From IMG/VR virus record IMGVR_UViG_3300043607_000048, positions 1 through 57,857 of that record: a DNA stretch of 57,857 nucleotides, one strand, 5' to 3'. Both the position numbers and the translations under genes were made by a program. The notes below the pieces were generated by a model, which ran no database searches, had not been told where the DNA came from, and saw only the letters and a program-made list of their open reading frames with translations. Below, one piece after another: positions 5,057 through 51,831 of this stretch (the first letter of the stretch is position 1; every line of letters starts with the position of its first letter). This DNA comes from a virus.

Positions 5057-5112
5057 TCGTCGCAATCTTCCGGCGCGTCTTCGTCGTCGGTCCAGTACCA
5101 GCCCTCAGGCAT
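5053..5112 (-). CDS. 19-residue acidic ORF between homing endonuclease and ATP-grasp gene
   Basis: The ATG at 5112 lies inside the last codons of the HNH gene (overlap ATGCCTGA), and the TGA overlaps the ATP-grasp ATG. The product, MPEGWYWTDDEDAPEDCDE, is strongly acidic. It may act only as a translational coupler, or be the remaining 3' end of a gene disrupted when the endonuclease inserted. I cannot tell which. Confidence 0.3.
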   Translation of the reverse strand: MPEGWYWTDDEDAPEDCDE

Positions 5113-8351: not shown

Positions 8352-8933
8352 TTACTCCCGTTTGCGCATTATCGCAAGCTCTTTCGAAAAGTGGATCGCG
8401 TCCACGTCGCCAGCTCCAGCGTGAATGTTCCCAACGAATGCGAGGAGCCAAGCCTTGGCATCGGCAGCAACGTTAAGGTCTTCAATCTCGTAGATACCGC
8501 CCGGTTTCACGCTCGGCCAAAGGAATCCAAACGTGGTGATGATGTCGCTGGAGATATGGGAGCCGTCATCAATGATGATGTCCCACTCGTTTCCATAGTC
8601 GGCTACAAAGCACTTCCAAAAAACTTCGCTGGTCTGATCCCCGCAATTGAACACGTATCGCGGGACTTCGGTTGAAAAGGGGGTGTTGTACGGGTTCGTG
8701 TCGTGAACGATGTCAACGCCGTGAACTAACGCCTTTGGGAAATACTCCAGCCACGTGCGCGCTGACTCGCCGCCGCCGATTCCGATTTCCAAAATCTTAA
8801 TTGCCTTGTAGCGCACCGGATCAAAGAACCGTTCAAGGTGTCGGCAATAGTCGTGAGGCTTGGCGTACGTGCGCGTGAACTGGCTGGCTTTATCGGTCTG
8901 ATGCTCAATCGCAATTTGGTCGAGCGTCTTCAT
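8352..8933 (-). CDS. SAM-dependent O-methyltransferase-like protein (MycE/demethylmacrocin type)
   Basis: This 193-residue protein carries an N-terminal 'QTDKASQFTRTYAKPHDYC' block and motif I ILEIGIGGGESARTW. The motif II/III region is WDIIIDDGSHISSDI, followed by KPGGIYEIEDL. The TDK block with IIIDDGSH is characteristic of the macrolide/sugar O-methyltransferase group. A sugar or small-molecule hydroxyl is therefore the likely acceptor. The ATG at 8933 overlaps the upstream TGA as ATGA; an in-frame GTG at 8942 is rejected. It closes the glycan-modification cluster before the endonuclease and portal genes. Confidence 0.82.
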   Translation of the reverse strand: MKTLDQIAIEHQTDKASQFTRTYAKPHDYCRHLERFFDPVRYKAIKILEIGIGGGESARTWLEYFPKALVHGVDIVHDTNPYNTPFSTEVPRYVFNCGDQTSEVFWKCFVADYGNEWDIIIDDGSHISSDIITTFGFLWPSVKPGGIYEIEDLNVAADAKAWLLAFVGNIHAGAGDVDAIHFSKELAIMRKRE

Positions 8934-9250
8934 TCTTTCCACAGCTCCATAGGTACACTTTTACCAGCGAGCGCGTGACGGCAATCTGTTTGGTAATTCA
9001 GAATGCCGCTGGTGATGACTACGTGACAATCGCTCTCTTTCCCATCGGTGAACATTATCCGCAATGACGGACTTATTGTTGGGCACATGGGGTTCCCGTC
9101 GTAACACCAAACCACGGGTGCCGTTGGAGCTGGAGGAGGAGCGTTTATGAACGGGACGCAATGCGCCCGATTGCAGCCGGGGCACCAAAAGCAAACATGG
9201 CTATGACTGCCGGGAGCGTGCTGCGGATAATGGACTACCCAGCCATTCAC
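8930..9250 (-). CDS. DUF6527-like small zinc-motif protein
   Basis: This 106-residue protein has CPGCNRAH (a CxxC plus His), a WCYDG segment, PTISPSLRI and CHVVITSGILNYQTDCRHAL. The order CxxC, W-x-x-x-G, PT-x-SPS, CH-x-x-I-x-x-G, D-C-x-H matches my memory of the short DUF6527-type family, common in phages and next to metabolic genes. Its biochemical role is unknown. The start is GTG at 9250, overlapping the TGA of the upstream methyltransferase (GTGA). Confidence 0.6.
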   Translation of the reverse strand: MNGWVVHYPQHAPGSHSHVCFWCPGCNRAHCVPFINAPPPAPTAPVVWCYDGNPMCPTISPSLRIMFTDGKESDCHVVITSGILNYQTDCRHALAGKSVPMELWKE

Positions 9251-9849
9251 AGTTTCTTAATCACAAAGGTGAAACCGTTCCCTACTTTGTCATCGGCTTC
9301 CTGAGTGGCGACTACTTCACAGCCGCCGATGTATTTGACTGCCTCCAGAGCATCCTCCAAATGCCAGACCGTGTGATGAAACAAAACCCAAGTGTGGACG
9401 GTCGGAACGAGTCCAACCATGTCCGGTGGCAAATACCTTCCCTCGTGCCGGTAAATCAAATCCTGCAATTTGGTTCGGAGCCGTCCCTTATCGAACGTGC
9501 GTTCTGGATGCGGGAAAATCGTAAAAACCAATCCGCCCGGCTTCACTACCCGGAGCCATTCCTTGAGCGCGCCCAACGTATCCCAATTGTGCTCCAGACA
9601 ATGCGAGCTAACTACGAAATCCCACTGGCCGGTTTCAAACGGTAGTTTGCAGCCATCGGCGATGACATCGACTCTGGCAGTCTCACCGCAATGCTCCATC
9701 TCCTCCTTCTTCCAAGACGTGTCGAGGCTATCGGTCCAATCAACGTTGAGAGTGTCCAGACCAAAAGGGTTGTGGGCTGAGGCTCCCATTTCAATTCCCT
9801 TCAATCCGGTGAGGAGTGAGTTTGCCAGTGCGCTAGTCGGTGATTTCAT
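9247..9849 (-). CDS. Class I SAM methyltransferase (type 11-like)
   Basis: This 200-residue protein has the motif I variant GIEMGASAHNPFGLDTLNVD, a motif II region PFETGQWDFVVSSHCLEH and motif III RVVKPGGLVFTIFPH. These are hallmarks of the methyltransferase_11 fold found in sugar and lipid modification clusters. The ATG at 9849 lies inside the last codons of the radical SAM gene (17-base overlap). The longer frame to 9945 runs through that gene and is less likely. The acceptor is not identifiable. Confidence 0.78.
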   Translation of the reverse strand: MKSPTSALANSLLTGLKGIEMGASAHNPFGLDTLNVDWTDSLDTSWKKEEMEHCGETARVDVIADGCKLPFETGQWDFVVSSHCLEHNWDTLGALKEWLRVVKPGGLVFTIFPHPERTFDKGRLRTKLQDLIYRHEGRYLPPDMVGLVPTVHTWVLFHHTVWHLEDALEAVKYIGGCEVVATQEADDKVGNGFTFVIKKL

Positions 9850-10918
9850 CAGTGCGCCACTTTGCCCGGTCCACGATATGGAAGTAAAGATTTGTCCGGT
9901 AGAAAAGACACTGCTTGCAAATGGAGTGCCCGGTCCTCTGCTCAATCATTTGGTCAGGAGTCGTGTCCAAATAATCTCCAACTGTGATCCTGCGGTCGGC
10001 AACGCACGCGCACATGGACGTCTTGCCGTCATGCCGGATAAACGTGAACATTGATCCAGCTCCCACCGGACAGACTTCGCGCATCGGGTGATGGGTGTAC
10101 AACTCCCGGGCCTGATCGGGCGGGATTTTAAGGCGCTGCATCGTGTCGATGTAGGTCTGGCCAACGGGCGGCAGCGCGGTATTCCAGTCGGGCCTGCCTG
10201 CCTGAATCTCAAACGGAGCTGCCAGCGGGTCTTTGGATCGGCAATACTGGATCGCGTTCTCCATTGAGATTGCCCGGGCGAGCGATGTGAAAAACTCAAT
10301 GCCTAAACCGGTAGCGTATTCCTTCATCAGCTCAATCTCATGGCCGTTGTCGTTATACACGTGGTAATTGACCGCGATTCTTACCTTGGGATTCAGCTTC
10401 GCGTTGGCTTCCGCGATGGTCACCATGTTGGCCATCACCTTTTCGATCTTACCGCCCGCGTGCCCCTTCTCGTAAACCTCCTGAGTAAACCCGGAGAGCG
10501 AAATGATGATCATGTCGGGCTGCTCGGCGAGCGTTTCGTCAACGCGCTGGATGAAATTCAGGTTGGTGGAAAACTCCGGGTGCAGACCGCGCCGTTTGAT
10601 CGCGGCGATGCACTCAGGTAACCGGGGATGCAAAAACGGCTCGCTGTTGCCGTAGAGGAACACAATCGCGTTCGGATTCTCGGAGGCAATCTTGTCCAGA
10701 ATCTTCTCCATCAACTCAGGCTCCATGACCCCGGTCAGGTGATCGTAACCTTTCTGGTTACCTTTCGTGCAGGTGGGGCAATGCAGGTTGCAAACGGAAT
10801 TAACCTCCAAGAAGTAGCGCCACGATTTTAGCCGGGTGTGCTCCATCGCAATTGCCCCGCCGCTCTCGGCGAAAGGGATCGCCGCGTCATCATAAGCTTT
10901 CTGCATCTCTGCCGTCAT
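9833..10918 (-). CDS. Radical SAM enzyme with C-terminal cysteine cluster
   Basis: This 361-residue protein has the canonical CNLHCPTC motif (Cys43, Cys47, Cys50) for the [4Fe-4S]-SAM cluster. A TIM-barrel-like sequence follows. A C-terminal Cys-rich region (CPVGAG about 285, CACV about 304, C-x2-C about 340) looks SPASM-like and would bind auxiliary clusters. SPASM-type enzymes modify peptides, sugars or other small molecules. Flanked by glycosyltransferases and methyltransferases, it may act on the same glycan or on a virion peptide. It follows the glycosyltransferase-like gene by 12 bases. Substrate unknown. Confidence 0.85.
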   Translation of the reverse strand: MTAEMQKAYDDAAIPFAESGGAIAMEHTRLKSWRYFLEVNSVCNLHCPTCTKGNQKGYDHLTGVMEPELMEKILDKIASENPNAIVFLYGNSEPFLHPRLPECIAAIKRRGLHPEFSTNLNFIQRVDETLAEQPDMIIISLSGFTQEVYEKGHAGGKIEKVMANMVTIAEANAKLNPKVRIAVNYHVYNDNGHEIELMKEYATGLGIEFFTSLARAISMENAIQYCRSKDPLAAPFEIQAGRPDWNTALPPVGQTYIDTMQRLKIPPDQARELYTHHPMREVCPVGAGSMFTFIRHDGKTSMCACVADRRITVGDYLDTTPDQMIEQRTGHSICKQCLFYRTNLYFHIVDRAKWRTDEITD

Positions 10919-10930
10919 AGGCTCACGCTA

Positions 10931-11608
10931 TCACGATCCGATTGGCCCGGCATAATAATTTTTGATGAACGGCAGGCGCGGGCCGTTGCCAAGGATTACC
11001 TCAGCCTCATACCTGCTCTCCAATGAACCGATCCCGGAATCTTTGATGCGGCGGCGGGTGAAGATGCTGGGGATGGTTGAAAAGAATTCCGATCGTACCC
11101 AATAGAAGTTTCCCGCGAAATAGTGCTGAGAGTGATCCCAACCCTGCCCGGTAAGCCAGTGGCACCCTACCGCTTCGTAAACAGAAAGGTCGGCGACACA
11201 ATGCCGCCAGTGCGTTACGCAGTAGTGCATCATGCGCCTTCGCCAGTTGCCCGCGAACGTGCCGTAATCGCTGCCCTCGGCGTGAGTCGATCCTTTGCAG
11301 TGAAAGTACAGGACCGCCCATTGCGGGTGAGTCTTAACCCATTTCTCCATCATCACCAGCGTGAGATTTTCAGAGCGGCTGTCCAAGCCGTGGTAAGTGA
11401 CCTGCGCTTTGTCCGGGAGCAATCCCTGAGCATATACTTTGCTCTCCTCCCCGCCGTTCACGCCAATGTGAATCTCCTGAGCGGCTTCCTCCAGCCCGCT
11501 CTCTTTCATCATGGCCATCTGCTCATGGACAACGTTTAGCGCGTTGGGTACCGCATCGTTGCCGATCTGGAAAAGGCAGTGATAGAAGACGGCAATGGGC
11601 AGGGGCAT
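10931..11608 (-). CDS. Glycosyltransferase-like protein (HCKG/FAGNF type)
   Basis: This 225-residue protein contains WAVLYFHCKGSTH and, about 55 residues later, HYFAGNFYWVRSEFF. These landmarks match a family of putative GT-A-type glycosyltransferases in phages and polysaccharide loci (HTKG ... HFSGNFWW). The N-terminus MPLPIAVFYHCLFQIG is a typical first strand. The ATG at 11608 shares its A with the TAA of the upstream gene (TAATG), so the longer frame to 11635 is rejected. It probably transfers a sugar to a glycan on the virion or host surface. The acceptor is unknown. Confidence 0.68.
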   Translation of the reverse strand: MPLPIAVFYHCLFQIGNDAVPNALNVVHEQMAMMKESGLEEAAQEIHIGVNGGEESKVYAQGLLPDKAQVTYHGLDSRSENLTLVMMEKWVKTHPQWAVLYFHCKGSTHAEGSDYGTFAGNWRRRMMHYCVTHWRHCVADLSVYEAVGCHWLTGQGWDHSQHYFAGNFYWVRSEFFSTIPSIFTRRRIKDSGIGSLESRYEAEVILGNGPRLPFIKNYYAGPIGS

Positions 11609-12288
11609 TATTCGCAGTGATAATACGGCGGGCACGTGAGCCGGTCGCCGATGATGATATTTTCTTGGGAAGCGTTGTGGAATCCGCCGCGCATAGAGTC
11701 GCAGTCGTGGAGCGGCTTCACTTCATTCCAGCCCGCAATCCAAACGGGCTTTTGCTGCCTGAGCGTCCACGTGGTCAAACCTTCCGGGCCGTGCTCGTAG
11801 GGATAACGCTGGGCATTGTTGGTGACGCGCAACGGATGATCGTTGACTAGCTTCGGCGAACACCAAAATCCGGTAGTTCGAACATGCGGGAACACGTTGA
11901 AGCGTGAGTCACCTTGGTTCCCGGTGCATCCGTAAAGTCCATCGCCGTAGGTTTGATAAACGTTCACGATGCGAGCCAGCCAGTGCGCGCCGCGAAAGTA
12001 GCTGTTGCCACCACAGAAAACCATCAGGTCACACGGCACACTCCTTGCCGCCAACTGGAATCCCCCGATGTCGAATCCGCTATCGTCGTGCTCCAGAAAT
12101 TGGCAGTTGGGCATAGACTCAAACAGGAACCGGGTTTGATCGTCGGCCTTGCCGCCGTTGCAGATTATCACCGAGTCGTGGACGTATCCGGCAGGGTGCG
12201 CGTTGTAGCTGGCGATGAATTTTATTGCCCGGTCAAGGTGACCGTTACCTCCGTTCTCGGGGTAGATGAAAACTACAGCGACTTTCAT
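11608..12288 (-). CDS. Glycosyltransferase-like protein, RgpF-style DIGG motif (paralogue A)
   Basis: This 226-residue protein has a GT-A-like beginning (MKVAVVFIYPENGG), a sugar-nucleotide-type motif EHDDSGFDIGGFQLA, then CDLMVFCGGNSYFRGAHWLA. The 'D-x-G-F-D-I-G-G-F' block resembles the NxGxDIG motif of rhamnan/RgpF-like glycosyltransferases. It is a diverged paralogue of the adjacent 12285-12920 gene: both have CDLMV-x-x-G, PHxRTT-x-FW and YxxEHGP in the same order. The start overlaps the upstream stop as ATGA. Confidence 0.62.
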   Translation of the reverse strand: MKVAVVFIYPENGGNGHLDRAIKFIASYNAHPAGYVHDSVIICNGGKADDQTRFLFESMPNCQFLEHDDSGFDIGGFQLAARSVPCDLMVFCGGNSYFRGAHWLARIVNVYQTYGDGLYGCTGNQGDSRFNVFPHVRTTGFWCSPKLVNDHPLRVTNNAQRYPYEHGPEGLTTWTLRQQKPVWIAGWNEVKPLHDCDSMRGGFHNASQENIIIGDRLTCPPYYHCE

Positions 12289-12920
12289 TCCCCGAAATCT
12301 CTAAGGGAATGTTGGTCCCTTGCCAATGCTTCTTCTATCGGAATCGCGTGCCAGTGTTTGAGCGAGTACGCCCCGGCCCATGTAACTTGAAACGGTTCAA
12401 AGCCCAATCGCCAGCTCCAGAGCGCGATACTCTGAGGGCCGTGCTCAAACGCGTATCTATCAGCGTCGGATTCAAGATAGGGATAGCTCGCCAGCATCTC
12501 CCGGGGGAGCCAGAAGAAAGTGGTCCGTATGTGCGGCGTAGGCTCCTGAAAGGCCCATGCCCCGTAAACTGCCGGGCCGATGTGCAGGTAGGAATTCACA
12601 ATCACGTCCAGCCAACCGGGCTTCCAAAAGTTGACGTGTGATCCCATGCAAACCATCAGGTCACAATCAATCGCCTGAGAGGCAAGGTAGAACGCGCCCA
12701 AATCCTTTGCCCAATTGTTGTGCGAATGGAATACCGGCGAGAGCGGCTCAAACCATTGCCGGGCTTCTTTAACTGAGGCGGTGCCGTTGACGATGACGTG
12801 AAGCTCATGGTCGGCGGCACCGCCCGGATGCTCCATGTAGCTCTCTACGAATTTACGGGCGGCGGGGCAATACTTCGCGGGATCGACTGTCGGGAAAACG
12901 TAAACGAGCGCAACGCGCAT
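12285..12920 (-). CDS. Glycosyltransferase-like protein (paralogue B)
   Basis: This 211-residue paralogue of the next gene has MRVALVYVFPTVD at the N-terminus, HNNWAKDLGAFYLAS as the nucleotide-sugar-like motif, CDLMVCMGSHVNFWKPGWLD, and PHIRTTFFW ... YAFEHGPQSI. The DIGG of paralogue A is DLGA here. The pair probably arose by tandem duplication and may add successive sugars. I start at ATG 12920, although a GTG codon precedes it. It is the first gene of the sugar/methyl cluster; a gap of about 100 bases separates it from the upstream small genes. Confidence 0.6.
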   Translation of the reverse strand: MRVALVYVFPTVDPAKYCPAARKFVESYMEHPGGAADHELHVIVNGTASVKEARQWFEPLSPVFHSHNNWAKDLGAFYLASQAIDCDLMVCMGSHVNFWKPGWLDVIVNSYLHIGPAVYGAWAFQEPTPHIRTTFFWLPREMLASYPYLESDADRYAFEHGPQSIALWSWRLGFEPFQVTWAGAYSLKHWHAIPIEEALARDQHSLRDFGE

Positions 12921-13018
12921 CACTCACGGAAAAGGTTAGACTCTGTGCCTACGACCGCAGTTTTTACATTTCATAAATTATTTCTCTGCGTATTCGTTGG
13001 TCGGAGGGTGGAAAATGG

Positions 13019-23087: not shown

Positions 23088-24146
23088 ATGAGAATTGGTG
23101 AGTTTGAAGATTTCTTCCGGCGTGCGCTGGTTAAGAAAAAGCGTGTCCTGACACTCGGCAAGCCCGGCGTCGGGAAAACATTCGTGCGCGAATCAGTGTG
23201 CAAGGCGCTGGGGTACGATTACATCGGGGTGACTGCCCCGTTAATGTCCCCGGTGAAAATCGGCGGCTACCCCCGTGCGCCATTGGTCGAGGGCGGGGAT
23301 GCAACTCATGCGCTGTTTGACGGGATCGCCCGGGCATTCCGCGCAACGAAACCTACCCATCTCCACATTGACGATTTGGGCATGGCGAACGGCGAAACCC
23401 TGAAAGCCATTGTTGACCTTGTGCAGTTTGGCAGGATCGACAATCGCACGCTCCCTGATTGCGTGGTCGTGGGCGCGTCATCAAATGACGTGGGGCACGG
23501 TGCTGACGTGCAGGGCATGATTGAGCCGCTCAAAAGCCGGTGGAATACCATCGTTGAAGTCGAGTGCTTCATTGACGATACGGTTATCTACGGACTGAAC
23601 AAGGGATGGCCAGCGTGTTTGCTCGGCTACCTTCGAAACGACAATGAAGCGCTCCATGATTGGAAACCTTCGAAGTCGATGAAGATTGACGGCGCGTGTC
23701 CCCGGGGATGGGAATACGTTGCGGAATGGATCAATGACGGCTTCGATGATCCTGAGGTTATCGCGGGTTGCGTCGGCAAGGGCCGGGCGACTGCTTATCT
23801 GGCCTACCGGGGTTTGGTCAACCAGTTGCCGGACATTAACGCAATCATGGCCGATCCTGAGGGCGCGCTGGTACCGGAAAAAGCTGACGTCAAATACTTC
23901 GTGGCGATGGCGCTCGCTTCGAAAATCAAATGCGGGACGTTTGGCCCGGCGTTGCGATACCTGAACCGGTTGCCGCAACCGTTCCGGGCATTCTCGGTGC
24001 GGGACGCTATCAAAGCGGAGTCAGCTAAGAGCAAGGCCGGTACTCTCCCGGACAACTATAAGCCGATCCACTTTGACCGTGACTATGTGGCATGGAGCTG
24101 CACAAAGGACGGTCAGGAGGTTGTCAGCGCTGCCAGCACCAAATGA
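23088..24146 (+). CDS. MoxR-type AAA+ ATPase
   Basis: This 352-residue protein has Walker A GKPGVGKT (24-31), Walker B HLHIDDLG (about 93-98), a sensor-1-like VVGASSND, and an arginine-finger candidate in SRW. The arrangement and the small alpha-helical lid match MoxR-family AAA+ chaperones. These ATPases work with VWA-domain partners to remodel or activate proteins. Such a partner is encoded two genes downstream (24698), and a DUF3150-like gene follows. The gene starts a cluster with the conserved leader element and is coupled to the next gene by ATGA. Confidence 0.82.
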   Translation: MRIGEFEDFFRRALVKKKRVLTLGKPGVGKTFVRESVCKALGYDYIGVTAPLMSPVKIGGYPRAPLVEGGDATHALFDGIARAFRATKPTHLHIDDLGMANGETLKAIVDLVQFGRIDNRTLPDCVVVGASSNDVGHGADVQGMIEPLKSRWNTIVEVECFIDDTVIYGLNKGWPACLLGYLRNDNEALHDWKPSKSMKIDGACPRGWEYVAEWINDGFDDPEVIAGCVGKGRATAYLAYRGLVNQLPDINAIMADPEGALVPEKADVKYFVAMALASKIKCGTFGPALRYLNRLPQPFRAFSVRDAIKAESAKSKAGTLPDNYKPIHFDRDYVAWSCTKDGQEVVSAASTK

Positions 24147-24376
24147 AACCGCTAACGGAATCGGAGATACGGCAATGCCGGTACTGGTCTGCGCTGGTCC
24201 GGTCAGCTATGCAACTCGGGTTAGTTGATAAGTTTTGCCGATCCCGGGTGTTCGTTGACTGGTCAATGAGCGAAACCGGTTGGCGGGTCGTGAGAGCGCT
24301 AGGCGCTAGTGATCCCGCATTGCTAAAGGCGTTGTCCGAAGTGAGAGCGGCATTTCCCGTTTCTAAAAAGTGGTGA
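24143..24376 (+). CDS. Small protein between MoxR and VWA genes
   Basis: This 77-residue protein starts at ATG 24143 (ATGA overlap). It is helical and basic (ESEIRQCRYWSALVRSAMQL). No known family. Its tight linkage to the AAA+ gene suggests an accessory or adaptor, which is inference. Confidence 0.58.
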   Translation: MKPLTESEIRQCRYWSALVRSAMQLGLVDKFCRSRVFVDWSMSETGWRVVRALGASDPALLKALSEVRAAFPVSKKW

Positions 24377-24462
24377 GCTAGAGCGTGGTTGCCCGGTGTC
24401 GTTTGCCGGGCAATCCCTCTCTGTTCACAATGACGTGAGCGGATTACTGAAAGGAAATTATT
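24377..24462 (+). promoter_or_regulatory. Spacer cassette: GAGCGTGG-hairpin-TCCCTCTC plus ACTGAAAGGAAA
   Basis: TTGCCCGG/CCGGGCAA forms an 8-base-pair perfect hairpin. It is flanked by the same GAGCGTGG and TCCCTCTC words as the spacer at 22394. The leader element is at 24446-24457 and the ATG at 24463. Confidence 0.58.
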
Positions 24463-24696
24463 ATGGAGCAATGGCAAATTGCTTGGGATAACGGTCACGC
24501 TTCCGGCGTGTTCCCGGTTATCTTCAAAACCAAAACAGAAGCCAGCAAGTACGGCGCGAATTGGAAGCGTGACATGGTGGCTTTAGAAGCTGATCCGAAA
24601 GAGCGAGCTGAGGCCCGGCGCGCTTACCAGTGGGAAGTGATCCCGTGGACGGTTCACCCATCGGGCCGGGCGGGTAACTCTCAATGGGGATACTGA
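24463..24696 (+). CDS. Small protein, unknown
   Basis: This 77-residue protein starts at ATG after the leader element. A strand-rich start (MEQWQIAWDNGHASGVFPVI) is followed by a helix (EASKYGANWKRDMVALEADP). It ends 1 base before the VWA gene. Confidence 0.58.
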   Translation: MEQWQIAWDNGHASGVFPVIFKTKTEASKYGANWKRDMVALEADPKERAEARRAYQWEVIPWTVHPSGRAGNSQWGY

Positions 24697-24697
24697 C

Positions 24698-25936
24698 ATG
24701 AACGATAAAACTCGAATGAAGCGAATAGAGCGCGCTCAAATGCGGGTGCTGTTCACGGTGCCGTTTTTCGCGCCGGGAGTGGTCAAGCTGCCGGTGGAGT
24801 TTGACGACAAGGTTGAGACGGCTTGCACCAATGGGGAGCGAATCCTTTTCTCTCCAGCGTTTTGTGACAAGCTCAGTGATCAGGAATTGGTGACCGTCCT
24901 GTGTCATGAGGTTTGCCATTGCATGTTTGGACATCTCTGGCGCGCTCCCGATCCCTGCAATTGGGACGTCTGGAATCAGGCAACCGATCACGCGGTCAAC
25001 CTGATGCTGAAAGAATTCAGCGCTGGGGTGATGGCAAAGGGTCTGGCCGATCCGTTCCCGTTCCCGCAACCGGAGTCGAATTACTGCATAGACCCTCAGT
25101 TCAAGGGCGTGGCCGAAGAAGCCATATACACCCGGCTTAACGTCCAGAAGCCCCCGGGCGGGTCTGGCGGGGGTCAAGGGCAGGCCGGGAGTGGAAAAGC
25201 CTCTCCTAGTGGCAATCCCGGCACGGGCCAAGGGCAGGGAAAGCCATTTGGTCAGATTGAAAAGCCCGCAAACCCGGGTCAACCGGGCGCAACCCAGTCA
25301 ACCAGCAAGCAGTTGCAGAATGATTGGACGGCTACCCTGCTCCAGTCGGCAAAGCTGGCGGCGGGTCAGGGTGATTTGCCCGGCTCCCTTCAACGTCTTG
25401 TTCAGGATATTGTGAATCCCAAAATTGATTGGGTGCAGGTGCTTCGGTCGTGGTTGCGGGAGCAATGCGCCGATGACTGGAATTGGCAAGCGCCAGCGCT
25501 GGAGCTGGAAGGCAGCGGGTTCATCATGCCGTCCCTCAAATCTGAGAAGATGGGGCCGGTCGTGTTTGGGTCAGATTGGTCGGGATCGACGTTCGGGGAG
25601 TTGGTCACCAAATTCCATGCGGAAAAAGTGAACTGTCTGAACGATATGCGGCCAAGCAAGCTCATAGACATCGGCTTTGATACCCGAGTCGTTTGGGAAA
25701 AGGAATATACGCCCGGTGACGTGATTGACAGTCACGTTGCCGGGGGCGGCGGTACGTCGTTTGTGGACGTGCTGAGGCGGTGCTCGGAATTGATTCCGGC
25801 ACCTAAGTGCGTGGTGATCCTCACTGATCTGATGGGTGAATTTCCGAAAGAAGCTCCCCCGTTCCCGGTCGTGTGGGTTGTCTACGGTGGTTTGGACAAC
25901 GCCCCTTTTGGGCAAGTGATTAACGCCGATGAGTGA
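24698..25936 (+). CDS. VWA-like protein with N-terminal metallopeptidase domain (DUF2201 type)
   Basis: This 412-residue protein has a zinc-peptidase HExxH motif (H70-E-V-C-H74, in VLCHEVCHCMFGH). WNQATDHAVN about 20 residues later supplies the further conserved Asp. A Gly/Pro/Gln-rich linker (about 150-205) separates this from a C-terminal VWA-like domain. That domain has MIDAS-type DWSGS, GGGGTSF and ILTDLMGEF. The organisation matches the DUF2201 metallopeptidase/VWA pairing known as a partner of MoxR ATPases. The AAA+ protein probably drives conformational change in this protein. Substrate unknown. Confidence 0.8.
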   Translation: MNDKTRMKRIERAQMRVLFTVPFFAPGVVKLPVEFDDKVETACTNGERILFSPAFCDKLSDQELVTVLCHEVCHCMFGHLWRAPDPCNWDVWNQATDHAVNLMLKEFSAGVMAKGLADPFPFPQPESNYCIDPQFKGVAEEAIYTRLNVQKPPGGSGGGQGQAGSGKASPSGNPGTGQGQGKPFGQIEKPANPGQPGATQSTSKQLQNDWTATLLQSAKLAAGQGDLPGSLQRLVQDIVNPKIDWVQVLRSWLREQCADDWNWQAPALELEGSGFIMPSLKSEKMGPVVFGSDWSGSTFGELVTKFHAEKVNCLNDMRPSKLIDIGFDTRVVWEKEYTPGDVIDSHVAGGGGTSFVDVLRRCSELIPAPKCVVILTDLMGEFPKEAPPFPVVWVVYGGLDNAPFGQVINADE

Positions 25937-26111
25937 AGCATCACCAAAAGGTAAAGGTATGCAGCATAGACTATGCTGGGCGCGCAACGTGGTGAAGAAG
26001 TTTGAAAGTGAACACTGGGAAACGTGGGATGAGGCGCGCCGGGCAGTTGCCCGAGAACGTTACGAGCGAGCTGTCGCGCTGATCCTGTACGACAAGCTGA
26101 AAAACTCTTAA
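25929..26111 (+). CDS. Small basic protein, unknown
   Basis: This 60-residue protein has an ATG at 25929 overlapping the VWA gene end by 8 bases; an ATG at 25959 is an alternative. Its helical body is Trp- and Arg-rich (KFESEHWETWDEARRAVARE). No family is recognised. Confidence 0.52.
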   Translation: MSEASPKGKGMQHRLCWARNVVKKFESEHWETWDEARRAVARERYERAVALILYDKLKNS

Positions 26112-26229
26112 CTCATTCAACCGCTAGGTGGTTCGGGTCAGTCGGTGACGGCTTTCCTTGCGGCATCATATAGCGGTTGACTGAGCCGGTCAGGAATTAA
26201 CCTGAACGGAATTACTGAAAGGAAAATAA
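26112..26229 (+). promoter_or_regulatory. Spacer with long stem and leader element
   Basis: TCAACCGCTA (26117-26126) and TAGCGGTTGA (26171-26180) are perfect 10-base complements. A smaller TCAGG/CCTGA hairpin follows. The leader element is at 26214-26225, just before GTG 26230. Confidence 0.55.
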
Positions 26230-27099
26230 GTGAATAGTTACAAGTTAAGTGAGAGAGCGGTACTGATGCAACTGAGCGCCGGGATGCCGGGCAAGCATCG
26301 TAAGGATCGGCAGTTGTCCGATCAGGTGAAGTCTGACAAAAACCTTGGTTCCCATTCCGGGTCGTGGATCAAAAACAAGTATCCTGAGTCAGCGCTGGAG
26401 CCGATTGAGAAGCTGGTAACGGCTGCGCGTGCGTATCACGGTGCGGTCACTCTGCCGTACGCGAACGGGATCGGGATTCTACCGGCTGCGCTGATTGCGG
26501 AGTACGGTGAGAAGATGCGGGAATTCGCCGGGCGGTTTGAAAACCTGCGCGATTCTCACTTCCGGGCGAAATACCCGGAGTTCATTGAGTGGGCGAAGAA
26601 GGAGCATAACGGCACGTTCGATGCCAGCGATTATCCGGAGGTCGATGAGGTTTGCAAAGCGTTCTACTTTCGGACTGAGCCGGTGCCGGTACCCGATGCC
26701 GCGCACTTCGAAACAACCGTCAAGAGCTTGCTCGGTGTCGATGCTGATAGCGTCAACATGCGCGTGCAGGATGCGATGGAAGAAGCTCAGAAAGAGCTGA
26801 TGCGCCGATTGATTGAGCCGGTCAAAGCAATGGCGGTGAAGCTGGCAGAGCAACCGAAAGAGGGAAAAGACTCCCCGGTGTTTCGTGATTCGCTGATCGG
26901 CAACGTGAAAGAGATTGCCCGGCTTGCGCCGAAGCTGAACATTGCCGGTGATCCCGCGATTGACAGCTTTGTGAAAGAGATGTCAGCGCTGATCAGCTAT
27001 GACGCTGATGCGCTCCGCAAGTCTCCTAACGCGCGGGAAAAGGCGGCGGAAGATGCCCGGGTGATTCTGGCGAAACTGGAAGGATACAAAGGATTCTGA
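26230..27099 (+). CDS. DUF3150-like protein of the MoxR/VWA locus
   Basis: This 289-residue protein has a GTG start. It is largely helical. The N-terminal block (RAVLMQLSAGMPGKHRKDRQ, then LSDQVKSDKNLG) and the 'AYHGAVTLPYANGIGILPAA' segment match my memory of DUF3150 proteins, encoded next to MoxR ATPases in phages. No catalytic motif is visible. It is probably the substrate or adaptor of the AAA+/VWA pair. Confidence in the family name is moderate; confidence that it belongs to this locus is higher. Confidence 0.62.
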   Translation: MNSYKLSERAVLMQLSAGMPGKHRKDRQLSDQVKSDKNLGSHSGSWIKNKYPESALEPIEKLVTAARAYHGAVTLPYANGIGILPAALIAEYGEKMREFAGRFENLRDSHFRAKYPEFIEWAKKEHNGTFDASDYPEVDEVCKAFYFRTEPVPVPDAAHFETTVKSLLGVDADSVNMRVQDAMEEAQKELMRRLIEPVKAMAVKLAEQPKEGKDSPVFRDSLIGNVKEIARLAPKLNIAGDPAIDSFVKEMSALISYDADALRKSPNAREKAAEDARVILAKLEGYKGF

Positions 27100-29357: not shown

Positions 29358-29606
29358 ATGAAAAATTTAGGTAAACAGATTGTAGTTGTGGACAACGGTT
29401 TTGTTCACGTTGGAGATTGCTCTTTGAACGATGGGCTGCTTTGCATTGAAAATGCCAAGAACATTCGGAAATACGGTACGTCACAAGGGCTTGGTCAACT
29501 GGTGGCTGGGCCAATGAAAGAAACGGTTGCTGATGAGATGGGCACTCTCTTGGTTCCATTGGCGCGGGTTGTGTTTTTTCTTCGCGTGGTGGAGGGCTGG
29601 AAATGA
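29358..29606 (+). CDS. Small protein downstream of the attenuator
   Basis: This 82-residue protein starts MKNLGKQIVVVDNGFVHVGD. It is hydrophobic and strand-rich, and ends ARVVFFLRVVEGWK. No family is recognised. Its expression may be controlled by the upstream terminator/antiterminator pair. The stop overlaps the next ATG (ATGA). Confidence 0.55.
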   Translation: MKNLGKQIVVVDNGFVHVGDCSLNDGLLCIENAKNIRKYGTSQGLGQLVAGPMKETVADEMGTLLVPLARVVFFLRVVEGWK

Positions 29607-29971
29607 CTTTTAATTTCGGCGACGGCGACGGCTCCGGCTCCGGCTACGGGCCCGGCTCCGGCTCCGGCTCCGGCTACGGCGACGGCGACGGCTACGGCTA
29701 CGGCGACGGCTACGGCTACGGCTCCGGCTACGGCTCCGGCTCCGGCTCCGGCTACGGCTCCGGCTCCGGCTCCGGCTACGGCTCCGGCTCCGGCTCCGGC
29801 TACGGCTCCGGCTACGGCTCCGGCTACGGCTCCGGCTCTACAATTGCTCGTCACGACTGCGATATTTTAATTAGTCGAATTCTTTTAGCACAGCACATGG
29901 GAACCGCCGCCCTGTGTGGGATGAAAACCAATGGCGGATTATTGAAAGGAAAACGTTTAGCAAAAATATGA
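29603..29971 (+). CDS. Gly-Ser-Tyr-Asp dipeptide-repeat protein
   Basis: This 122-residue protein starts at ATG 29603 (ATGA). After MTFNF come about 37 consecutive G-x dipeptides, x being Ser, Tyr or Asp and once Pro. A 44-residue C-terminal tail includes CDILISRILLAQHM. The low-complexity region resembles silk-like or phase-separating sequences. The tail reads through ATTGAAAGGAAA (29941-29952) and ends in an ATGA shared with the annealing-protein gene. The overlaps on both sides argue that the repeat is translated. Function unknown. Confidence 0.55.
   Translation: MTFNFGDGDGSGSGYGPGSGSGSGYGDGDGYGYGDGYGYGSGYGSGSGSGYGSGSGSGYGSGSGSGYGSGYGSGYGSGSTIARHDCDILISRILLAQHMGTAALCGMKTNGGLLKGKRLAKI
29618..29838 (+). 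repeat. Hexanucleotide tandem repeat GGC(TCC/TAC/GAC)
   Basis: About 37 units of 6 bases, each GGC followed by TCC, TAC or GAC, run without interruption except one GGGCCC at about 29648. All repeats keep the frame of the 29603 gene. Length variation by whole units would not shift the frame. Confidence 0.9.
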
Positions 29972-31104
29972 CTCCACAACAGCAAGCCAGTAATCAGCAA
30001 GCGCGCCCTGCGCCGGTCACTTCAACTCGCCCCGCTGGGGGTGCCGCTCCCAAAACCGATTTCGAGCGCCTGATGGATGAAAAGGTGATGATCTATTCAC
30101 CCTTCGGCGCGCCGGAAAAAGACACGATCAAACTCACGGTGAAAATCGTGCAGGATTTGATTGCCGTTCCCACCAAGAGCGGCAAGACCTGCTCTGAGGC
30201 TGATGCCATTCGGTTTATGATGATGTGCAAAGCCAGAAGGCTAAACCCGTTTGAGGGTGACGCGTATCTGATCGGGTACGACACTCAGAACGGGCCTAAG
30301 TTTTCTCTGATCACCGCGCACCAAGCGTTCCTCAAGCGCGCTGAGGTTCATGCGGAATATGACGGCATGACAAGCGGGGTGATCCTGCTGGATGACGGGA
30401 ACATCGTGGAGCGCGAAGGCGATTTCCATTTGCCGGGAGAAACCGTTGTTGGCGGCTGGGCAACCGTCTTTTTAAAAAACCGTTCGCATCCCACGACTCG
30501 AAAGATTCGGCTGGAACGGTTCAATACCAACATGGCGCAATGGGCGAAAGACCCTGCGGGTATGATCGTCAAATGCTCTGAGGCTGATTCGCTTCGCTCC
30601 AGCTTTCCGACACTGGTTGGAGGTCTGTACCTTGACGGTGAAATCGAAATGGATTTTGGAGACATCTCCAAGATTAACACGTCACGACCGCTCTTTGAGA
30701 AGTCAACGCCGCGCACGCGCAAGCCGGAAGCCGCCGCGCCGGAAGCTCCAAAGCCTGAGGCACCGCCTGAGAAACCTGCCGATGATGCTCCCGCGAGCGA
30801 GCCGCCGAACGAGCCGCTGTTTGACCGTGAGGAGGCTGCCCCTGAGCAACCCGCCGCACCTGCACCTGCGCCGGAGCAACCGTCCGGGTTCAATCCACTC
30901 AAAGCGCTCCGCAATCTCCTCAAGGCAGGTGGCTTCAAGGAATCCCACATGCTGGATTTCTGGTCAACGACTGGCGCAACCGATGGCAGTCACTCCTCAC
31001 TGGAGGAGGTCATGATGGCGCTGCCGCTGGTGGTCAGCTCCACGGTTGAAAACTTCTCGCCGGTCGCGGATAAACTCAAGGAACTGAAAGCGGGTGCCAA
31101 GTGA
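29968..31104 (+). CDS. bet: Bet/RecT-type single-strand annealing protein
   Basis: This 378-residue protein's residues about 25-250 carry the Bet-family pattern: MMMCKARRLNPFEGDAYLIG, FSLITAHQAFLKRAEVH, then AEYDGMTSGVI. WATVFLKNR and MAQWAKDPAGMIVKCSEADS follow. A Pro/Ala/Glu-rich linker (about 255-320) leads to a short C-terminal helical domain. The protein anneals complementary single strands during recombination. ATG 29968 (ATGA overlap) is the start; a frame opening at 29914 lies inside the repeat gene. The nuclease follows immediately, as in lambda Red. Confidence 0.86.
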   Translation: MTPQQQASNQQARPAPVTSTRPAGGAAPKTDFERLMDEKVMIYSPFGAPEKDTIKLTVKIVQDLIAVPTKSGKTCSEADAIRFMMMCKARRLNPFEGDAYLIGYDTQNGPKFSLITAHQAFLKRAEVHAEYDGMTSGVILLDDGNIVEREGDFHLPGETVVGGWATVFLKNRSHPTTRKIRLERFNTNMAQWAKDPAGMIVKCSEADSLRSSFPTLVGGLYLDGEIEMDFGDISKINTSRPLFEKSTPRTRKPEAAAPEAPKPEAPPEKPADDAPASEPPNEPLFDREEAAPEQPAAPAPAPEQPSGFNPLKALRNLLKAGGFKESHMLDFWSTTGATDGSHSSLEEVMMALPLVVSSTVENFSPVADKLKELKAGAK

Positions 31105-32240
31105 GCGAAACCGTTATTGATCCCATTCGTAAGGGCTGGACGTCTGCCAGCAATGCCGCCGCTGATGCTGCGTGCCCGGGCCGTCACTTGGCGCAACGCG
31201 GCATCCCGGAGCCGCCGAAGTCTGCCGATGCGAGTCACGGCACGCTGATCCACCAAGCGCTTGCTGCTACCGGTGACGATGGCGTGACCCTCAAAAAGCT
31301 GTCACTGGAGCAACGTGAAGTATTCGACGCCTGCCGAGACATTGAAAAGCGCATTGTGTCGGGTTACTTGGGCGACACGAAAGACCCGGTTCGCGTGTGG
31401 CGGCATGAGCGGTCGTGGACAAAGGTGCAGCCGCAAAACTACATGCACTCCGGTGAGGCCGATGTCATCTATCGCTGTGGCAACCGGGCGATAATTGCTG
31501 ACTACAAGACGCTGGCAGGTGATGTGCAGGATTCACCGCGCAACCTACAGCTCCGTGATCTGGCGGTGTTGGTCCGGGGCGCGCTCGTAACTGTAACCGA
31601 AGTGGCTACACTTATCATTCAACCGTTTGTGACGCATACCCCTGAGGTTTGCGTTTACGGCAAAGAGGATTTGGACAAGGCGCAAGCGGAGATGTTTGCG
31701 CGCATCATCGCGTCCAACGATCCAAACTCCCAACGCGTTGCCGGGGAAGCTCAATGCCAATTCTGTTTGGCGGCGAATGGTCACTGTCTGGAAAACCAGA
31801 AATGGGCGAGTCAGATTGCACCGCCGCAATTGCTTACCGTCATGGAGACACCGTTCGCTCTGTGGTCACCGGCGCAAAGGGCGCTGGCGGCGGCTGCGCT
31901 CGGCCCGGCGCTGGACCTGCTGGAGAAGCTCAAGGCGCATCTGAAAGAGGGTCTGGCTAAAGACGCTGAGTTTGTGCCCGGCTTTTATTTGAAGCCCGGC
32001 AATAAACGCGAGACGATCACCAACCCTCAGGAATGTTTCACGCGGTTTGCTGCGCTCGGCGGTACCATGGAGCAATTCATGGGTACGATCGCCGTTGGCA
32101 AGACGGCGCTGAAAGAGGCGGTCAATCAGGTGACCGGAGCAAAAGGAAAACCGCTGGACGCGGCGATGAACGCTCTCACGGTCGGCATCGTGGAAGTGAG
32201 CCAGAACGCACCCAGCCTTAAAAAGAAGGAGGATCAATGA
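31101..32240 (+). CDS. PD-(D/E)XK exonuclease with a predicted iron-sulfur cluster (Cas4/AddB-like)
   Basis: This 379-residue protein has SHGTLIH (about 45-51), GEAD (Asp121), IIADYKT (Asp134, Lys136) and NLQLRDLAVLV as the Q-motif, defining a RecB/Cas4-type nuclease core. Cys25 (in AACPGRH) plus Cys219, Cys222 and Cys228 (CQFCLAANGHC) repeat the one-plus-three cysteine arrangement of AddB and Cas4, which binds [4Fe-4S]. It probably resects ends to load the annealing protein encoded just upstream. GTG start at 31101 (GTGA). Confidence 0.8.
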   Translation: MSETVIDPIRKGWTSASNAAADAACPGRHLAQRGIPEPPKSADASHGTLIHQALAATGDDGVTLKKLSLEQREVFDACRDIEKRIVSGYLGDTKDPVRVWRHERSWTKVQPQNYMHSGEADVIYRCGNRAIIADYKTLAGDVQDSPRNLQLRDLAVLVRGALVTVTEVATLIIQPFVTHTPEVCVYGKEDLDKAQAEMFARIIASNDPNSQRVAGEAQCQFCLAANGHCLENQKWASQIAPPQLLTVMETPFALWSPAQRALAAAALGPALDLLEKLKAHLKEGLAKDAEFVPGFYLKPGNKRETITNPQECFTRFAALGGTMEQFMGTIAVGKTALKEAVNQVTGAKGKPLDAAMNALTVGIVEVSQNAPSLKKKEDQ

Positions 32241-38105: not shown

Positions 38106-38386
38106 GCGACGTTAACAAATTCTATGACGGACAGGGGTTGGAAGGCGTTGAACACTTCGAAGCGCTGTGGGCTTTGCGCCATGTAATCGCCTTTAATGAG
38201 GATGAGCGCCAAACCGTGTTGCTGGCGCTCGCAGAGCTTTCAATCGCCCGCCCCGGGTGGGTGAATATGCTCAATGAGATTGCGCTGAAAATGGACAACA
38301 AGGATCAGCATGGGCACGCGGAGATGTTTGAAGGGTTCCGGCAGCTTCACGCCGGGCCGGTGACTGACGCGCTGAAAAACTCCTAA
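38102..38386 (+). CDS. Last gene of the plus-strand region, unknown
   Basis: This 94-residue protein has a TTG start at 38102 after a leader-like ACTGAAAGAGAA (38081-38092). It is helical with His-rich segments (DNKDQHGHAEMFEGFRQLHA). Its stop overlaps by 4 bases the stop of the giant minus-strand gene (38383), and there is no terminator between the convergent genes. Confidence 0.55.
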   Translation: MSDVNKFYDGQGLEGVEHFEALWALRHVIAFNEDERQTVLLALAELSIARPGWVNMLNEIALKMDNKDQHGHAEMFEGFRQLHAGPVTDALKNS

Positions 38387-41300
38387 GGCTGCGCGTTCAT
38401 GAAGTCATAAAACTGGTCTAACAAATCCTGCCGCTCCTCATTCGCCCGCGTGTAAATCTCCAGCTCTTTATCTGAGAGCGATTGCTGAAAGAGATGCTCA
38501 TTCTGCCGTTTGCTTCGGGTGAAAGGTGACTTGGCCCAAAGCTTCATTGCTTTGATGATGTCCTTATCGCTGTGAGACTTTTGCAGCGCGGTGAAAATCT
38601 TCGATGCCCCGCCTGTGTCGCCGTTTCGGATCGCCGTCCTCAATTTCGAATAGCTCGGATCGTCCGTCATCACCTGCTCCCAACCGGTGTCTTTCTTCAA
38701 CCCCTCTTTCTCCATGAACTGGTCAGCGAGATGGTACACCTGATTCACGGCGGTTTGACCGGCCTGCACTTTGATGCCTGCGCCTGACGCGAGCAATTGA
38801 CGCGGCAACGCACCCGGAGGATTCGGAGCAATCTGATTCGGGAAAAGAGCGTGCCCGGCAGCGCGCAACGGCGTGCCAATGGTGATCGGAACCGCTCCAG
38901 CGCCCGGCGTGACCTGAGCAAGCCCGGCCCGGAGTCTCGCGCCGCTGGTGGAGTACCGGTACCCCATCGGGTCTTCGCCCTTCCAAAATATGTTGGCCAT
39001 CTTTCCCACCGGTCCAAGCCGGTTCTCGCCCATCTTCACGATCCTGTCGAACACCTGCGGCTTTGTTTCCCCCAGCCGGATGAAGTCATGCGTTGTCTCG
39101 GCGAAAACTGCCATCGGCGAAAGCCAGACACCTTTCTCACCAATCGGAATAAACGCGTCCCATTTGTGCCCCTCCTCCTCATTCTGCCAAGTGGGCTGCT
39201 TTCGCGTGATCAAATTGATGAGCTGCGTGAGAGCGAAGTAGGTTCCAAGGCCGGTCGCCATCATCTTGCCGGTGGTACCCAGCGCCGGGAGTCCCTTGCG
39301 ATACGGCAGCTCCTTGCCCATCAGCGCGGCGGCTCCGCGCAACGGCAGAGCGGCAATCCGTGATGCGGCGGTGATTTCTTTTCGGATCAAACCTTCCTGC
39401 CACATCGGCGCGAGCATTACCAATTGCCCAAGGCTGCGGAACGTGGCGCTCTTGAAAATCCCCTGCCTGCCCAAGTTGCCGTAAATCGTATTGATGTCTT
39501 TGATCACGTCACGCGCCAGCTTCGGCAAAGGAGTGCCGGGCTTCGCTTTGCTGGCCTGCTCCAGACTGCGCACGGCATTCTCAATCATCATGCCCGGCAA
39601 GAACCGGTCAAACAGGAACCGGTTGTAGGGTGAAATCGCTTTGTGGTAAGCCTCACCGATGAAAGGGATGTTCTGCACCGCATCTTTGTAAAGCGCGTCC
39701 GTTATTTTGGACGCGTTCAATCCGTGCCTGAGCAATTCGTCGGCGATTGCCTTGCGCGTAACTTTAACCTTGGTGCCTCCGGGTCCGGTCAGCTCCACTT
39801 CTCCCGTTGCCCAATCGGCTGCGGCTTTCGAGATGTAACCCTTGTCCACGGCAGCTTGCAGATCACCCGCCCGATACGAGAGCGCTGAGTGACCGCCGCG
39901 ATACCCCACCGGGTCTTTCCCACCAATCGCTTTTCCGTACTGCCCCAGCCGGGCCAAGTGGAAGCTATCCAGCAAAAGCAAAACGCCGTGCTTCAAAATT
40001 CCGGTCGCTGCCAGCGCTTCCTTGCCCAAGGGTAAATCCGCAATGACATCGGGCCGGATCAGCGTCCTCACCAAACCGGCATACCCGCGATGCACCGCAA
40101 TTGGTTTCGAGTTGGCGCGAGCAAACACTAATTCGTAATCCGGTGACGGCGATTGCCACACAGGCTCTTTGCTGGTGAGTCCCGTAGTGGGATCAACAAC
40201 ATTCTTCATCGCCATGTTTGGCTGGGTTGCCACTGCCTTGCCGGTCGCCGGGTCTTTGATCCCGGTGAGCGCCTGAGTCCAGAGCATCCGTTCAACGCTT
40301 CTCCTACCGGCCATGATGCGAGTCTGAGCCAGCTCGGCAACGTCCTGACTGGCGAGGTAGTACGGACCGGCAGCAATCGCATCGTAAGGATTCTGGAATT
40401 TCTTGGGCATCCGGTATTGAGTCCCCAGCAACCGCTTGCCCGCAAAGTAATCACCGTGGAACAAGCCCGGGATGTAATTGTCCCGCTCAACGGTCGTGGA
40501 GCCGTGCAGCTTTTCAAACTCAATGGCATCGTGGACTTCTTTCCGGTACGCCTGCGCGCCCTCCACAAAAGTACGATCGGTCCAATTGGTGTTGGCGTAC
40601 TCAACCCCCGCCTGCATTTCCTTCACCGCTTTCATCCAGCGACGTCCCTCTCGCCGCTTCAACGGATTCAGGTCTTGGGTCCATGACCGGGCCTTTGCCT
40701 CCGCGATGTCGAGCTTGGCGCGCCAGTCCACAATCTTGCTCTTGTTGGCCGTCCAGTTCCCGTGCGCGTCGGTTTGACCGGCAGCGATGTAGGCAATGGA
40801 GGCTTTCCGGCGCTGAGTCGCTTCGGCGGCGTTCGCACGTTGCTCCCGCGTCATCTTGCTAAATGGATTTAGGGAGTATTTCCAGCCGGGCGCGGTCTTG
40901 TCCGTGGACGCGAGTTTGATCGCCTCCCGGGCATTGAGGGCAATCTGGCCGGAAGCACTATCGGCACCATCAAGGAGCGCCGGAATCTCCTGCTTAACGG
41001 CGCGCCGGGAGAAGATGTCTTTGATGTCACCGGTGGAGATGTCCCATTGCTCCTTGGCGGCGGCTTTAGCCTTGTCGAATGCGGCGGGCAGGTCTTTGGC
41101 CGGGATTGTTCCACGTGGAGCAATTTTCTCAGGCTTGCGAAACTTGCGGCCAACGGCTCCCCCGGGGCGCTCTCCCCGGGCGTACGGGCTGATGTCGATG
41201 CCCCGGGCTTCCAGTTCCGGGCTGGGCCGGTCCACGGTGGCGCTGTAGCTGGGCGCTTCGTCCAGAGCAGCCTGCGCCTCCAGAGACAGCATGGGACCGC

Positions 41301-51793: not shown

Positions 51794-51831
51794 CTTGAAT
51801 GTGCTGTACCCTTATCGTTAGATTCCCACAA

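What the first reader, a model, noticed from the sequence alone, without database searches (positions are those of the whole stretch)
23088..27099. Phage-borne MoxR AAA+ / VWA-metallopeptidase / DUF3150-like module
A complete MoxR ATPase, a DUF2201-type protein with HExxH and MIDAS motifs, and a helical DUF3150-like protein are grouped with small unknown proteins. MoxR-VWA pairs remodel metalloenzymes or stress complexes in bacteria, so a phage copy suggests active remodelling of a host or virion complex early in infection. The DUF2201 metallopeptidase site may give it proteolytic activity.
Basis: partly seen in the sequence, partly recalled or inferred. Interest (0 to 1): 0.68.

Follow-up and report, generated by a model that had tools for sequence, protein, structure and literature searches.

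The report
Phage ATPase-protease module shared with plasmids
This virus carries three genes for a ring-shaped ATP-driven motor, a partner that looks like a zinc protease with a docking domain, and a helper protein; the same trio occurs in hundreds of environmental viruses and, in related forms, on conjugative plasmids next to DNA-recombination genes, so it probably remodels or cuts DNA-bound proteins rather than building virus particles.

Summary
[quoted passage not shown] The ATPase/VWA pair is already known in phages (N4 gp24/gp25; jumbo phages, Iyer et al. 2021). The third protein turns it into a strict trio: all 80 fetched IMG/VR loci carrying a relative of it also carry the other two, on the same strand, within 7 kb. 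The trio also sits on Burkholderiales plasmids. A sister trio on IncC/MOBH conjugative plasmids has a homologous DUF3150 protein and a VWA protein with a hidden N-terminal HExxH domain, usually beside ssb-bet/RecT-lambda exonuclease genes. Plasmids have no virions, so the published virion-assembly proposal does not fit well. Best mechanism, inferred and unproven: VWA docks a zinc protease onto a MoxR ring to remodel or cleave DNA-bound protein during DNA entry, replication or recombination. Family membership is solid; substrate and function are unknown. Novelty: new variant of a known kind.

The parts
23088..24146 (+). MoxR-like AAA+ ATPase (352 aa); Walker A GKPGVGKT at residues 24-31, Walker B IDD (second acid Asp, not Glu), sensor-1 Asn133, Arg151, sensor-2 Arg206
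   Evidence: PHROG 1297 E=1e-37; residue conservation; AF2 pLDDT 91.6, closest folds NorQ and CbbQ
23157..23180 (+). Walker A motif GKPGVGKT
   Evidence: sequence
24698..25936 (+). DUF2201 protein: N-terminal HExxH metallopeptidase domain plus C-terminal VWA with intact MIDAS (412 aa)
   Evidence: PF13203 1.3e-36, PF09967 6.9e-18; PHROG 1314 2e-83
24905..24919 (+). HExxH (HEVCH) zinc-binding/catalytic motif; further conserved His79 and N93/D97
   Evidence: conserved 60-62 of 62 nonredundant relatives; N93 87/88, D97 88/88
25574..25588 (+). MIDAS DxSxS (DWSGS) of the VWA domain; Thr353 and Asp377 complete it
   Evidence: 60/60 relatives with sequence at each position
26230..27099 (+). DUF3150-like third component (289 aa), long helical hairpin, no fold match in the PDB
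   Evidence: PF11348 E=0.003; 30/50 family members hit PF11348; hhalign to true DUF3150; AF2 pLDDT 92.9; no PDB match at E<=0.001, viral DUF3150 match E=4e-19
24092..24376 (+). small ORF between AAA and VWA genes, unknown, no family match
   Evidence: not shown to be part of the module
24463..24696 (+). small ORF upstream of the VWA gene, unknown
   Evidence: weak PHROG 15153 E=0.01
25929..26111 (+). small ORF overlapping the 3' end of the VWA gene, unknown
29914..31104 (+). RecT single-strand annealing protein
   Evidence: PF03837 2e-26, PHROG 2760 1e-40
31101..32240 (+). PD-(D/E)XK / DUF2800 exonuclease, likely partner of RecT
   Evidence: PF10926 4e-9, PF12705 5e-7, PHROG 69 exonuclease 1e-17

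Best explanation
The three proteins form one ATP-driven remodelling protease. SHOWN: the three genes are a conserved, co-inherited module; the ATPase has its core catalytic residues and a NorQ/CbbQ (MoxR)-like predicted fold; the partner carries an intact HExxH zincin motif and an intact MIDAS; the third protein belongs to the DUF3150 superfamily. INFERRED: the ATPase forms a hexameric ring; the VWA domain docks on it through its MIDAS metal, as NorD does on NorQ; this places the N-terminal zinc protease at the ring; the DUF3150 protein recruits the substrate or DNA. The likely substrate is protein bound to the element's DNA during entry, replication or recombination (nucleoprotein roadblocks, finished recombination complexes, or attacking host nucleases), not virion proteins.
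For: Trio linkage 80/80 viral loci, same strand, median span 3.4 kb. Pairwise distances of the three proteins correlate at r=0.89-0.90 over 54 nonredundant loci (no background correction made). HExxH E 61/62, both His 60/62 and 62/62, MIDAS 60/60. AAA fold closest to NorQ, NorQ-NorD VWA complexes and CbbQ. Same trio on Burkholderiales plasmids, conjugative and not. Sister trio on IncC/MOBH plasmids: DUF3150 homologous (score 82.3 vs 20.3 best shuffle); its VWA protein has an N-terminal HExxH in 11/11 and an N-x-x-E-D-x-x-I-[ED] motif like N93/D97 here, profile score 41.0 vs 20.2 best shuffle. In 12 sampled plasmid loci of that sister group, 11 have a lambda-exonuclease/YqaJ gene and 8 a Bet/RecT gene, in some inside the trio. 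The window has RecT and exonuclease 3 kb downstream. In IMG/VR loci the trio is on the strand of DNA polymerase (22/22) and helicase (21/21) genes and opposite terminase (23/23) and portal-like (9/9) genes. In N4 the pair lies between the RNAP genes and dCTP deaminase.
Against: No biochemical data; no substrate. Only 6 of 32 searched virus records with the trio have a recognisable RecT, so the recombination link is strong on plasmids but patchy in viruses. Duo phages (N4, phiFa, PA5oct, G) lack the third protein, so it is not needed everywhere. Docking of VWA on AAA is by analogy; no complex was modelled. The window ATPase has Asp in place of the catalytic Walker B Glu (52 D: 36 E over all loci), which might slow hydrolysis.
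Confidence: 0.42

Rival explanations
1. Virion assembly/maturation: the MoxR-VWA-peptidase processes structural proteins, as proposed for group 2.2 jumbo phages and by analogy with the Acidianus two-tailed virus chaperone.
For: Published proposal for the same domain pair (PMC7824862). The PA5oct ATPase gene carries a mass-spectrometry note; an ATPase of 49.5 kDa is in the phAPEC6 virion proteome table, whose identity with this family I did not verify.
Against: Homologous trios occur on plasmids, which have no virions. In viruses the trio lies on the replication strand, opposite terminase and portal-like genes. The phAPEC6 virion list also contains thymidylate synthase, so it is not limited to structural proteins.
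Confidence: 0.2
2. Host takeover or anti-defence: the complex disables or degrades a host defence or repair protein early in infection or plasmid establishment.
For: Early location; the third component is concentrated on phages and plasmids and was found in only 1 of 398 sampled Pseudomonadota genomes, the seed genome itself. Bet/Exo neighbours on IncC elements belong to a system whose published title links it to repair of CRISPR-made breaks (reference).
Against: No defence-system family match. The sequence shows no target. It overlaps with the best explanation if the target is DNA-bound.
Confidence: 0.2
3. Maturation chaperone for a metalloenzyme, like NorQD, CobST or CbbQO; the HExxH domain is structural or metal-handling only.
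For: Closest solved folds are NorQ and CbbQ; the pCAR1 ATPase matches CobS.
Against: No consistent metalloenzyme neighbour seen in the trio loci; Glu of HExxH, needed for hydrolysis but not for zinc binding, is conserved 61/62.
Confidence: 0.12
4. HNH endonuclease, as PHROG 1314 and many GenBank records label the VWA protein.
For: Annotation only.
Against: The domains found are DUF2201_N metallopeptidase and DUF2201 VWA, with no HNH family hit.
Confidence: 0.01

Closest known systems
Phage N4 gp24/gp25 pair (Schitoviridae) and jumbo-phage MoxR-vWA-metallopeptidase pair (PMC7824862)
   Same: Same ATPase and same metallopeptidase-VWA protein (PHROG 1297/1314), close together, early/middle region
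   Different: No detectable third component in N4, phiFa, PA5oct or phage G genomes; Walker B has Glu there, Asp here
AAA - DUF3150 - VWA module of IncC, IncP-7 (pCAR1 ORF100-103) and other MOBH conjugative plasmids; reported conserved in R478, Rts1, SXT and R391 (PMC2642839)
   Same: Three components of the same types; DUF3150 homologous; VWA protein also has an N-terminal HExxH (11/11); RecT/exonuclease neighbours
   Different: ATPase is CobS/CbbQ-like; VWA protein ~600 aa of the CoxE/CobT type, not DUF2201; lies among conjugation genes
Burkholderiales plasmid ATP-binding protein / hypothetical / VWA-like trio
   Same: Same three families as the window, identity 23-35%, Asp in Walker B
   Different: Gene order AAA-DUF3150-VWA; no RecT seen beside it in the four loci examined
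NorQ-NorD (MoxR-VWA) of denitrifiers
   Same: ATPase fold; VWA partner with MIDAS
   Different: NorD has no DUF2201 metallopeptidase domain (from knowledge); different role; no DUF3150 partner

Membership tests
MoxR AAA+ ATPases | Walker A/B, sensor-1 Asn, arginine finger, sensor-2 Arg | tested here: met
   conserved in nearly all of 61 nonredundant relatives; second Walker B acid is Asp in the window
MoxR AAA+ ATPases | closest fold/sequence to MoxR-clade members | tested here: met
   top PDB folds NorQ and CbbQ; profile also hits midasin, NorQ, McrB; bpMoxR 17/45 and AAA_3 15/45 members
MoxR AAA+ ATPases | curated family score for the window protein | tested here: not met
   Pfam hits below cutoff, no NCBIfam hit; so filed as MoxR-like, by fold and partner, not by a curated model
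MoxR AAA+ ATPases | VWA partner gene | tested here: met
DUF2201 metallopeptidase-VWA | PF13203 + PF09967 above cutoff | tested here: met
   127 and 65 bits
DUF2201 metallopeptidase-VWA | intact HExxH and MIDAS | tested here: met
DUF2201 metallopeptidase-VWA | protease activity | not testable with these tools
   needs assay
DUF3150 | PF11348 above cutoff | tested here: not met
   17.3 vs 24.9 bits; so called DUF3150-like
DUF3150 | homology to authentic DUF3150 by profile comparison | tested here: met
   96.8%, 153 columns, score 82.3 vs 20.3 shuffled
DUF3150 | gene between or beside MoxR-type AAA and VWA genes | tested here: met
Known anti-phage defence systems | match to a PADLOC model | tested here: not met
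   no hit
HNH endonuclease (PHROG 1314 label) | HNH domain | tested here: not met
   no HNH domain in Pfam scan

The most novel reading that the evidence does not exclude
Phages and conjugative plasmids share an unrecognised class of ATP-powered, VWA-docked zinc protease (MoxR + zincin-VWA + DUF3150) that clears or processes proteins on mobile DNA so that recombination, replication or repair can proceed: a mobile-element counterpart of p97/Spartan-type DNA-protein processing.
Probability: 0.25. Interest if true: 0.82.

Novelty: new variant of a known kind. Interest (0 to 1): 0.56.

Why it matters
The ATPase/VWA pair has been listed as 'unknown' in N4-like phages since 2009 and is often mislabelled 'HNH endonuclease'. 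Linking it through DUF3150 to a module on more than a thousand, mostly conjugative, plasmids, showing that those plasmid VWA proteins also carry a hidden zincin motif, and noting the Red-recombination neighbourhood turns a vague chaperone idea into a testable one: that mobile elements carry a dedicated remodelling protease for their DNA phase. It also weakens the only published functional proposal I found (virion maturation). If right, the genes beside bet/exo on IncC-type plasmids gain a function.

Tried and rejected
Single-protein scans of IMG/VR for the VWA and third proteins found nothing; alignments of the VWA and AAA proteins were too divergent to scan with; the third protein's alignment worked. 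A tree of the VWA protein does not resolve duo from trio origins (long branches, many open forks), so I make no claim whether the third gene was gained or lost. RecT as a universal neighbour in viruses: rejected, 6/32 records. HNH endonuclease label: rejected on domain content. Defence-system membership: no PADLOC hit. Fold search of the third protein gave no significant PDB relative; weak hits to vinculin- and spectrin-like helix bundles were ignored. Promoter and terminator scans gave numbers close to the shuffled expectation. No literature on DUF3150 found: zero of 5.39 million held papers contain the word. The NAR 2020 paper on IncC/SXT repair of CRISPR-made breaks is not held, so only its title is used, from a reference list.

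Full report
OBSERVATION. The window is a 57,857-base virus record. Three small ORFs lie between them and have no convincing family match. Downstream on the same strand are RecT (29914-31104) and a PD-(D/E)XK/DUF2800 exonuclease (31101-32240). A terminase-like gene (51799-53739, PHROG 2, E=7e-10) marks this as a tailed-phage genome.

KNOWN RELATIVES. The VWA protein has relatives in 550 phage records, including N4 gp25 beside gp24, Thermus phage phiFa, PA5oct and phage G, all with the same ATPase nearby. The pair was tabulated as unknown in N4-like roseophages in 2009 (PMC2784036). It was described as a MoxR-vWA chaperone pair with an N-terminal metallopeptidase in group 2.2 jumbo phages, with a virion-assembly proposal, in 2021 (PMC7824862). 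PHROG 1314 and many records call the VWA protein an HNH endonuclease; its domains do not support that.

THE THIRD PROTEIN MAKES IT A TRIO. Plasmid loci from Burkholderiales have an ATPase, a ~300-aa hypothetical or DUF3150 protein and a VWA-like protein in that order, and all three align with the window proteins. An alignment of the third protein found 285 relatives in IMG/VR. I fetched the best 80: all 80 also contain the ATPase and the VWA protein, all on the same strand. Order is AAA-DUF3150-VWA in 74 of 85 loci (plasmids and window included), AAA-VWA-DUF3150 in six (the window, four close relatives and L072), and DUF3150-AAA-VWA in five; median span 3.4 kb. These loci include near-duplicates; 54 are nonredundant. 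Pairwise distances of the three proteins correlate at 0.89-0.90, which fits co-inheritance but was not corrected for shared ancestry. N4, phiFa, PA5oct and G genomes lack the third protein. It was found in 1 of 398 Pseudomonadota genomes, the one being the seed genome, in 44 plasmids and in 3 cultured-phage records of identical length, 65,014 bases (locus). It is therefore concentrated on mobile elements.

CATALYTIC STATE. Over 62 nonredundant relatives the HExxH glutamate is kept in 61, the two histidines in 60 and 62, a further histidine in 61; all five MIDAS positions are kept in 60 of 60 with sequence. Asn93 and Asp97 are kept in 87 and 88 of 88 loci with sequence. A Variovorax plasmid copy has lost the first His and Glu.

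STRUCTURE. AlphaFold2 models: third protein pLDDT 92.9, ATPase pLDDT 91.6. The ATPase's best PDB matches are NorQ, including NorQ in complex with the NorD VWA domain, and the rubisco activase CbbQ, a MoxR ATPase; sequence profiles also reach midasin, NorQ and McrB. The third protein has no significant PDB match but matches viral DUF3150 models (E=4e-19).

THE SISTER MODULE ON CONJUGATIVE PLASMIDS. pCAR1 carries AAA - DUF3150 - VWA (annotated NorD) with ssb, RecT and lambda-exonuclease genes about 10-16 kb downstream; its ORF100-103 were reported conserved in R478, Rts1, SXT and R391, with ORF101 a MoxR-like ATPase and ORF103 a VWA protein (PMC2642839). The authentic DUF3150 protein (E=8e-92) has relatives on 1,139 plasmids, 983 of them typed conjugative. 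In an IncC example the order is AAA - hypothetical - ssb - bet - exo - DUF3150 - VWA; in others ssb - RecT - exo - AAA - DUF3150 - VWA. Of 12 loci read, 11 have a lambda-exonuclease or YqaJ gene and 8 a Bet/RecT gene. The window family's third protein is homologous to this DUF3150 (hhalign 96.8%, score 82.3; best of 60 column shuffles 20.3; unrelated profiles 18-19). All 11 VWA proteins examined, annotated only as VWA/NorD, have an N-terminal HExxH at residues 57-80 followed by N-x-x-E-D-x-x-I-[ED], which resembles the DUF2201 N93/D97 motif; profile score of the N-terminal domains 41.0 against 20.2 for the best of 40 shuffles and 13.7-15.6 for unrelated families. This last homology is probable, not proven. 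DUF3150 of this plasmid type is almost absent from IMG/VR by the pattern scan used (1 locus).

CONTEXT IN VIRUSES. With loci turned so that the trio is on +, terminase (23/23), a gene that looks like a small terminase (21/21) and portal-like genes (9/9) are on -, while DNA polymerase (22/22), helicase (21/21) and a PD-(D/E)XK gene (16/16) are on + (functions assigned by me from the sequences, and dominated by one virus group). RecT occurs in 6 of 32 searched virus records, so RecT itself is optional.

HOW IT PROBABLY WORKS. MoxR rings with VWA partners are remodelling machines (established for NorQD, CbbQO, CobST and RavA-ViaA; general knowledge). Here the VWA partner carries an apparently active zinc protease domain, so the simplest reading is that the ring pulls or positions a substrate that the protease cuts, with the DUF3150 protein supplying specificity. 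Substrate choice is inference: presence on plasmids argues against virion proteins; the shared phases of phages and conjugative elements are DNA entry, replication, recombination and escape from host defences; the Red-type neighbours on plasmids point to recombination and repair. I put about 0.42 on remodelling or proteolysis of DNA-bound protein, 0.2 each on virion assembly and anti-defence, and 0.12 on metalloenzyme maturation.

NOVELTY. The pair is known. The trio in viruses, its homology to the plasmid AAA-DUF3150-VWA module, and the hidden zincin motif of the plasmid VWA proteins were not found in the literature held (the word DUF3150 occurs in none of 5.39 million papers; most subscription papers are not covered). 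I rate it a new variant of a known kind.

Noticed in passing
L106, L108-L114, L116-L118 (IncC, IncP-7 and other mostly MOBH plasmids): The 'VWA domain-containing' or 'NorD' proteins beside DUF3150 carry a conserved N-terminal HExxH (11/11) and an N-x-x-E-D-x-x-I-[ED] motif; not recognised in a Pfam scan of one member.
   Followed up: yes
PHROG 1314 / many GenBank phage records (e.g. N4 NC_008720, PA5oct, phage G): The metallopeptidase-VWA protein is widely mislabelled 'HNH endonuclease'.
   Followed up: partly
IMG/VR loci such as L062:4508-5185 and L080:14187-15077: Two further unknown families (about 225 and 300 aa) follow the VWA gene in 22 and 21 loci of one virus group; candidates for extra components there.
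   Followed up: no
window 29617-29838: Array of 6/12-base repeats (consensus CGGCTACGGCTC) inside ORF 29603-29971, coding a Gly-Ser-Tyr low-complexity stretch.
   Followed up: no
window 5105-5569 and 7850-8341 (-): Two similar HNH-type ORFs flank a 799-aa ORF (5566-7965), like homing endonucleases around a virion gene.
   Followed up: no
window 8352-12923 (-): Two methyltransferase-like genes, a radical-SAM protein (9833-10918) and three unknown proteins (10931-12923) within the structural strand.
   Followed up: partly
window 38383-44742 (-): A 2,119-aa ORF without any PHROG or Pfam match.
   Followed up: no
L003 (Thermus phage phiFa) and L008 (Variovorax plasmid): Ribonuclease H genes sit right beside or inside the module in both a phage and a plasmid.
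   Followed up: no
L006, L007 (Burkholderiales plasmids): PRTRC (ThiF/ParB-related) cassette genes lie 6-8 kb upstream of the trio.
   Followed up: no
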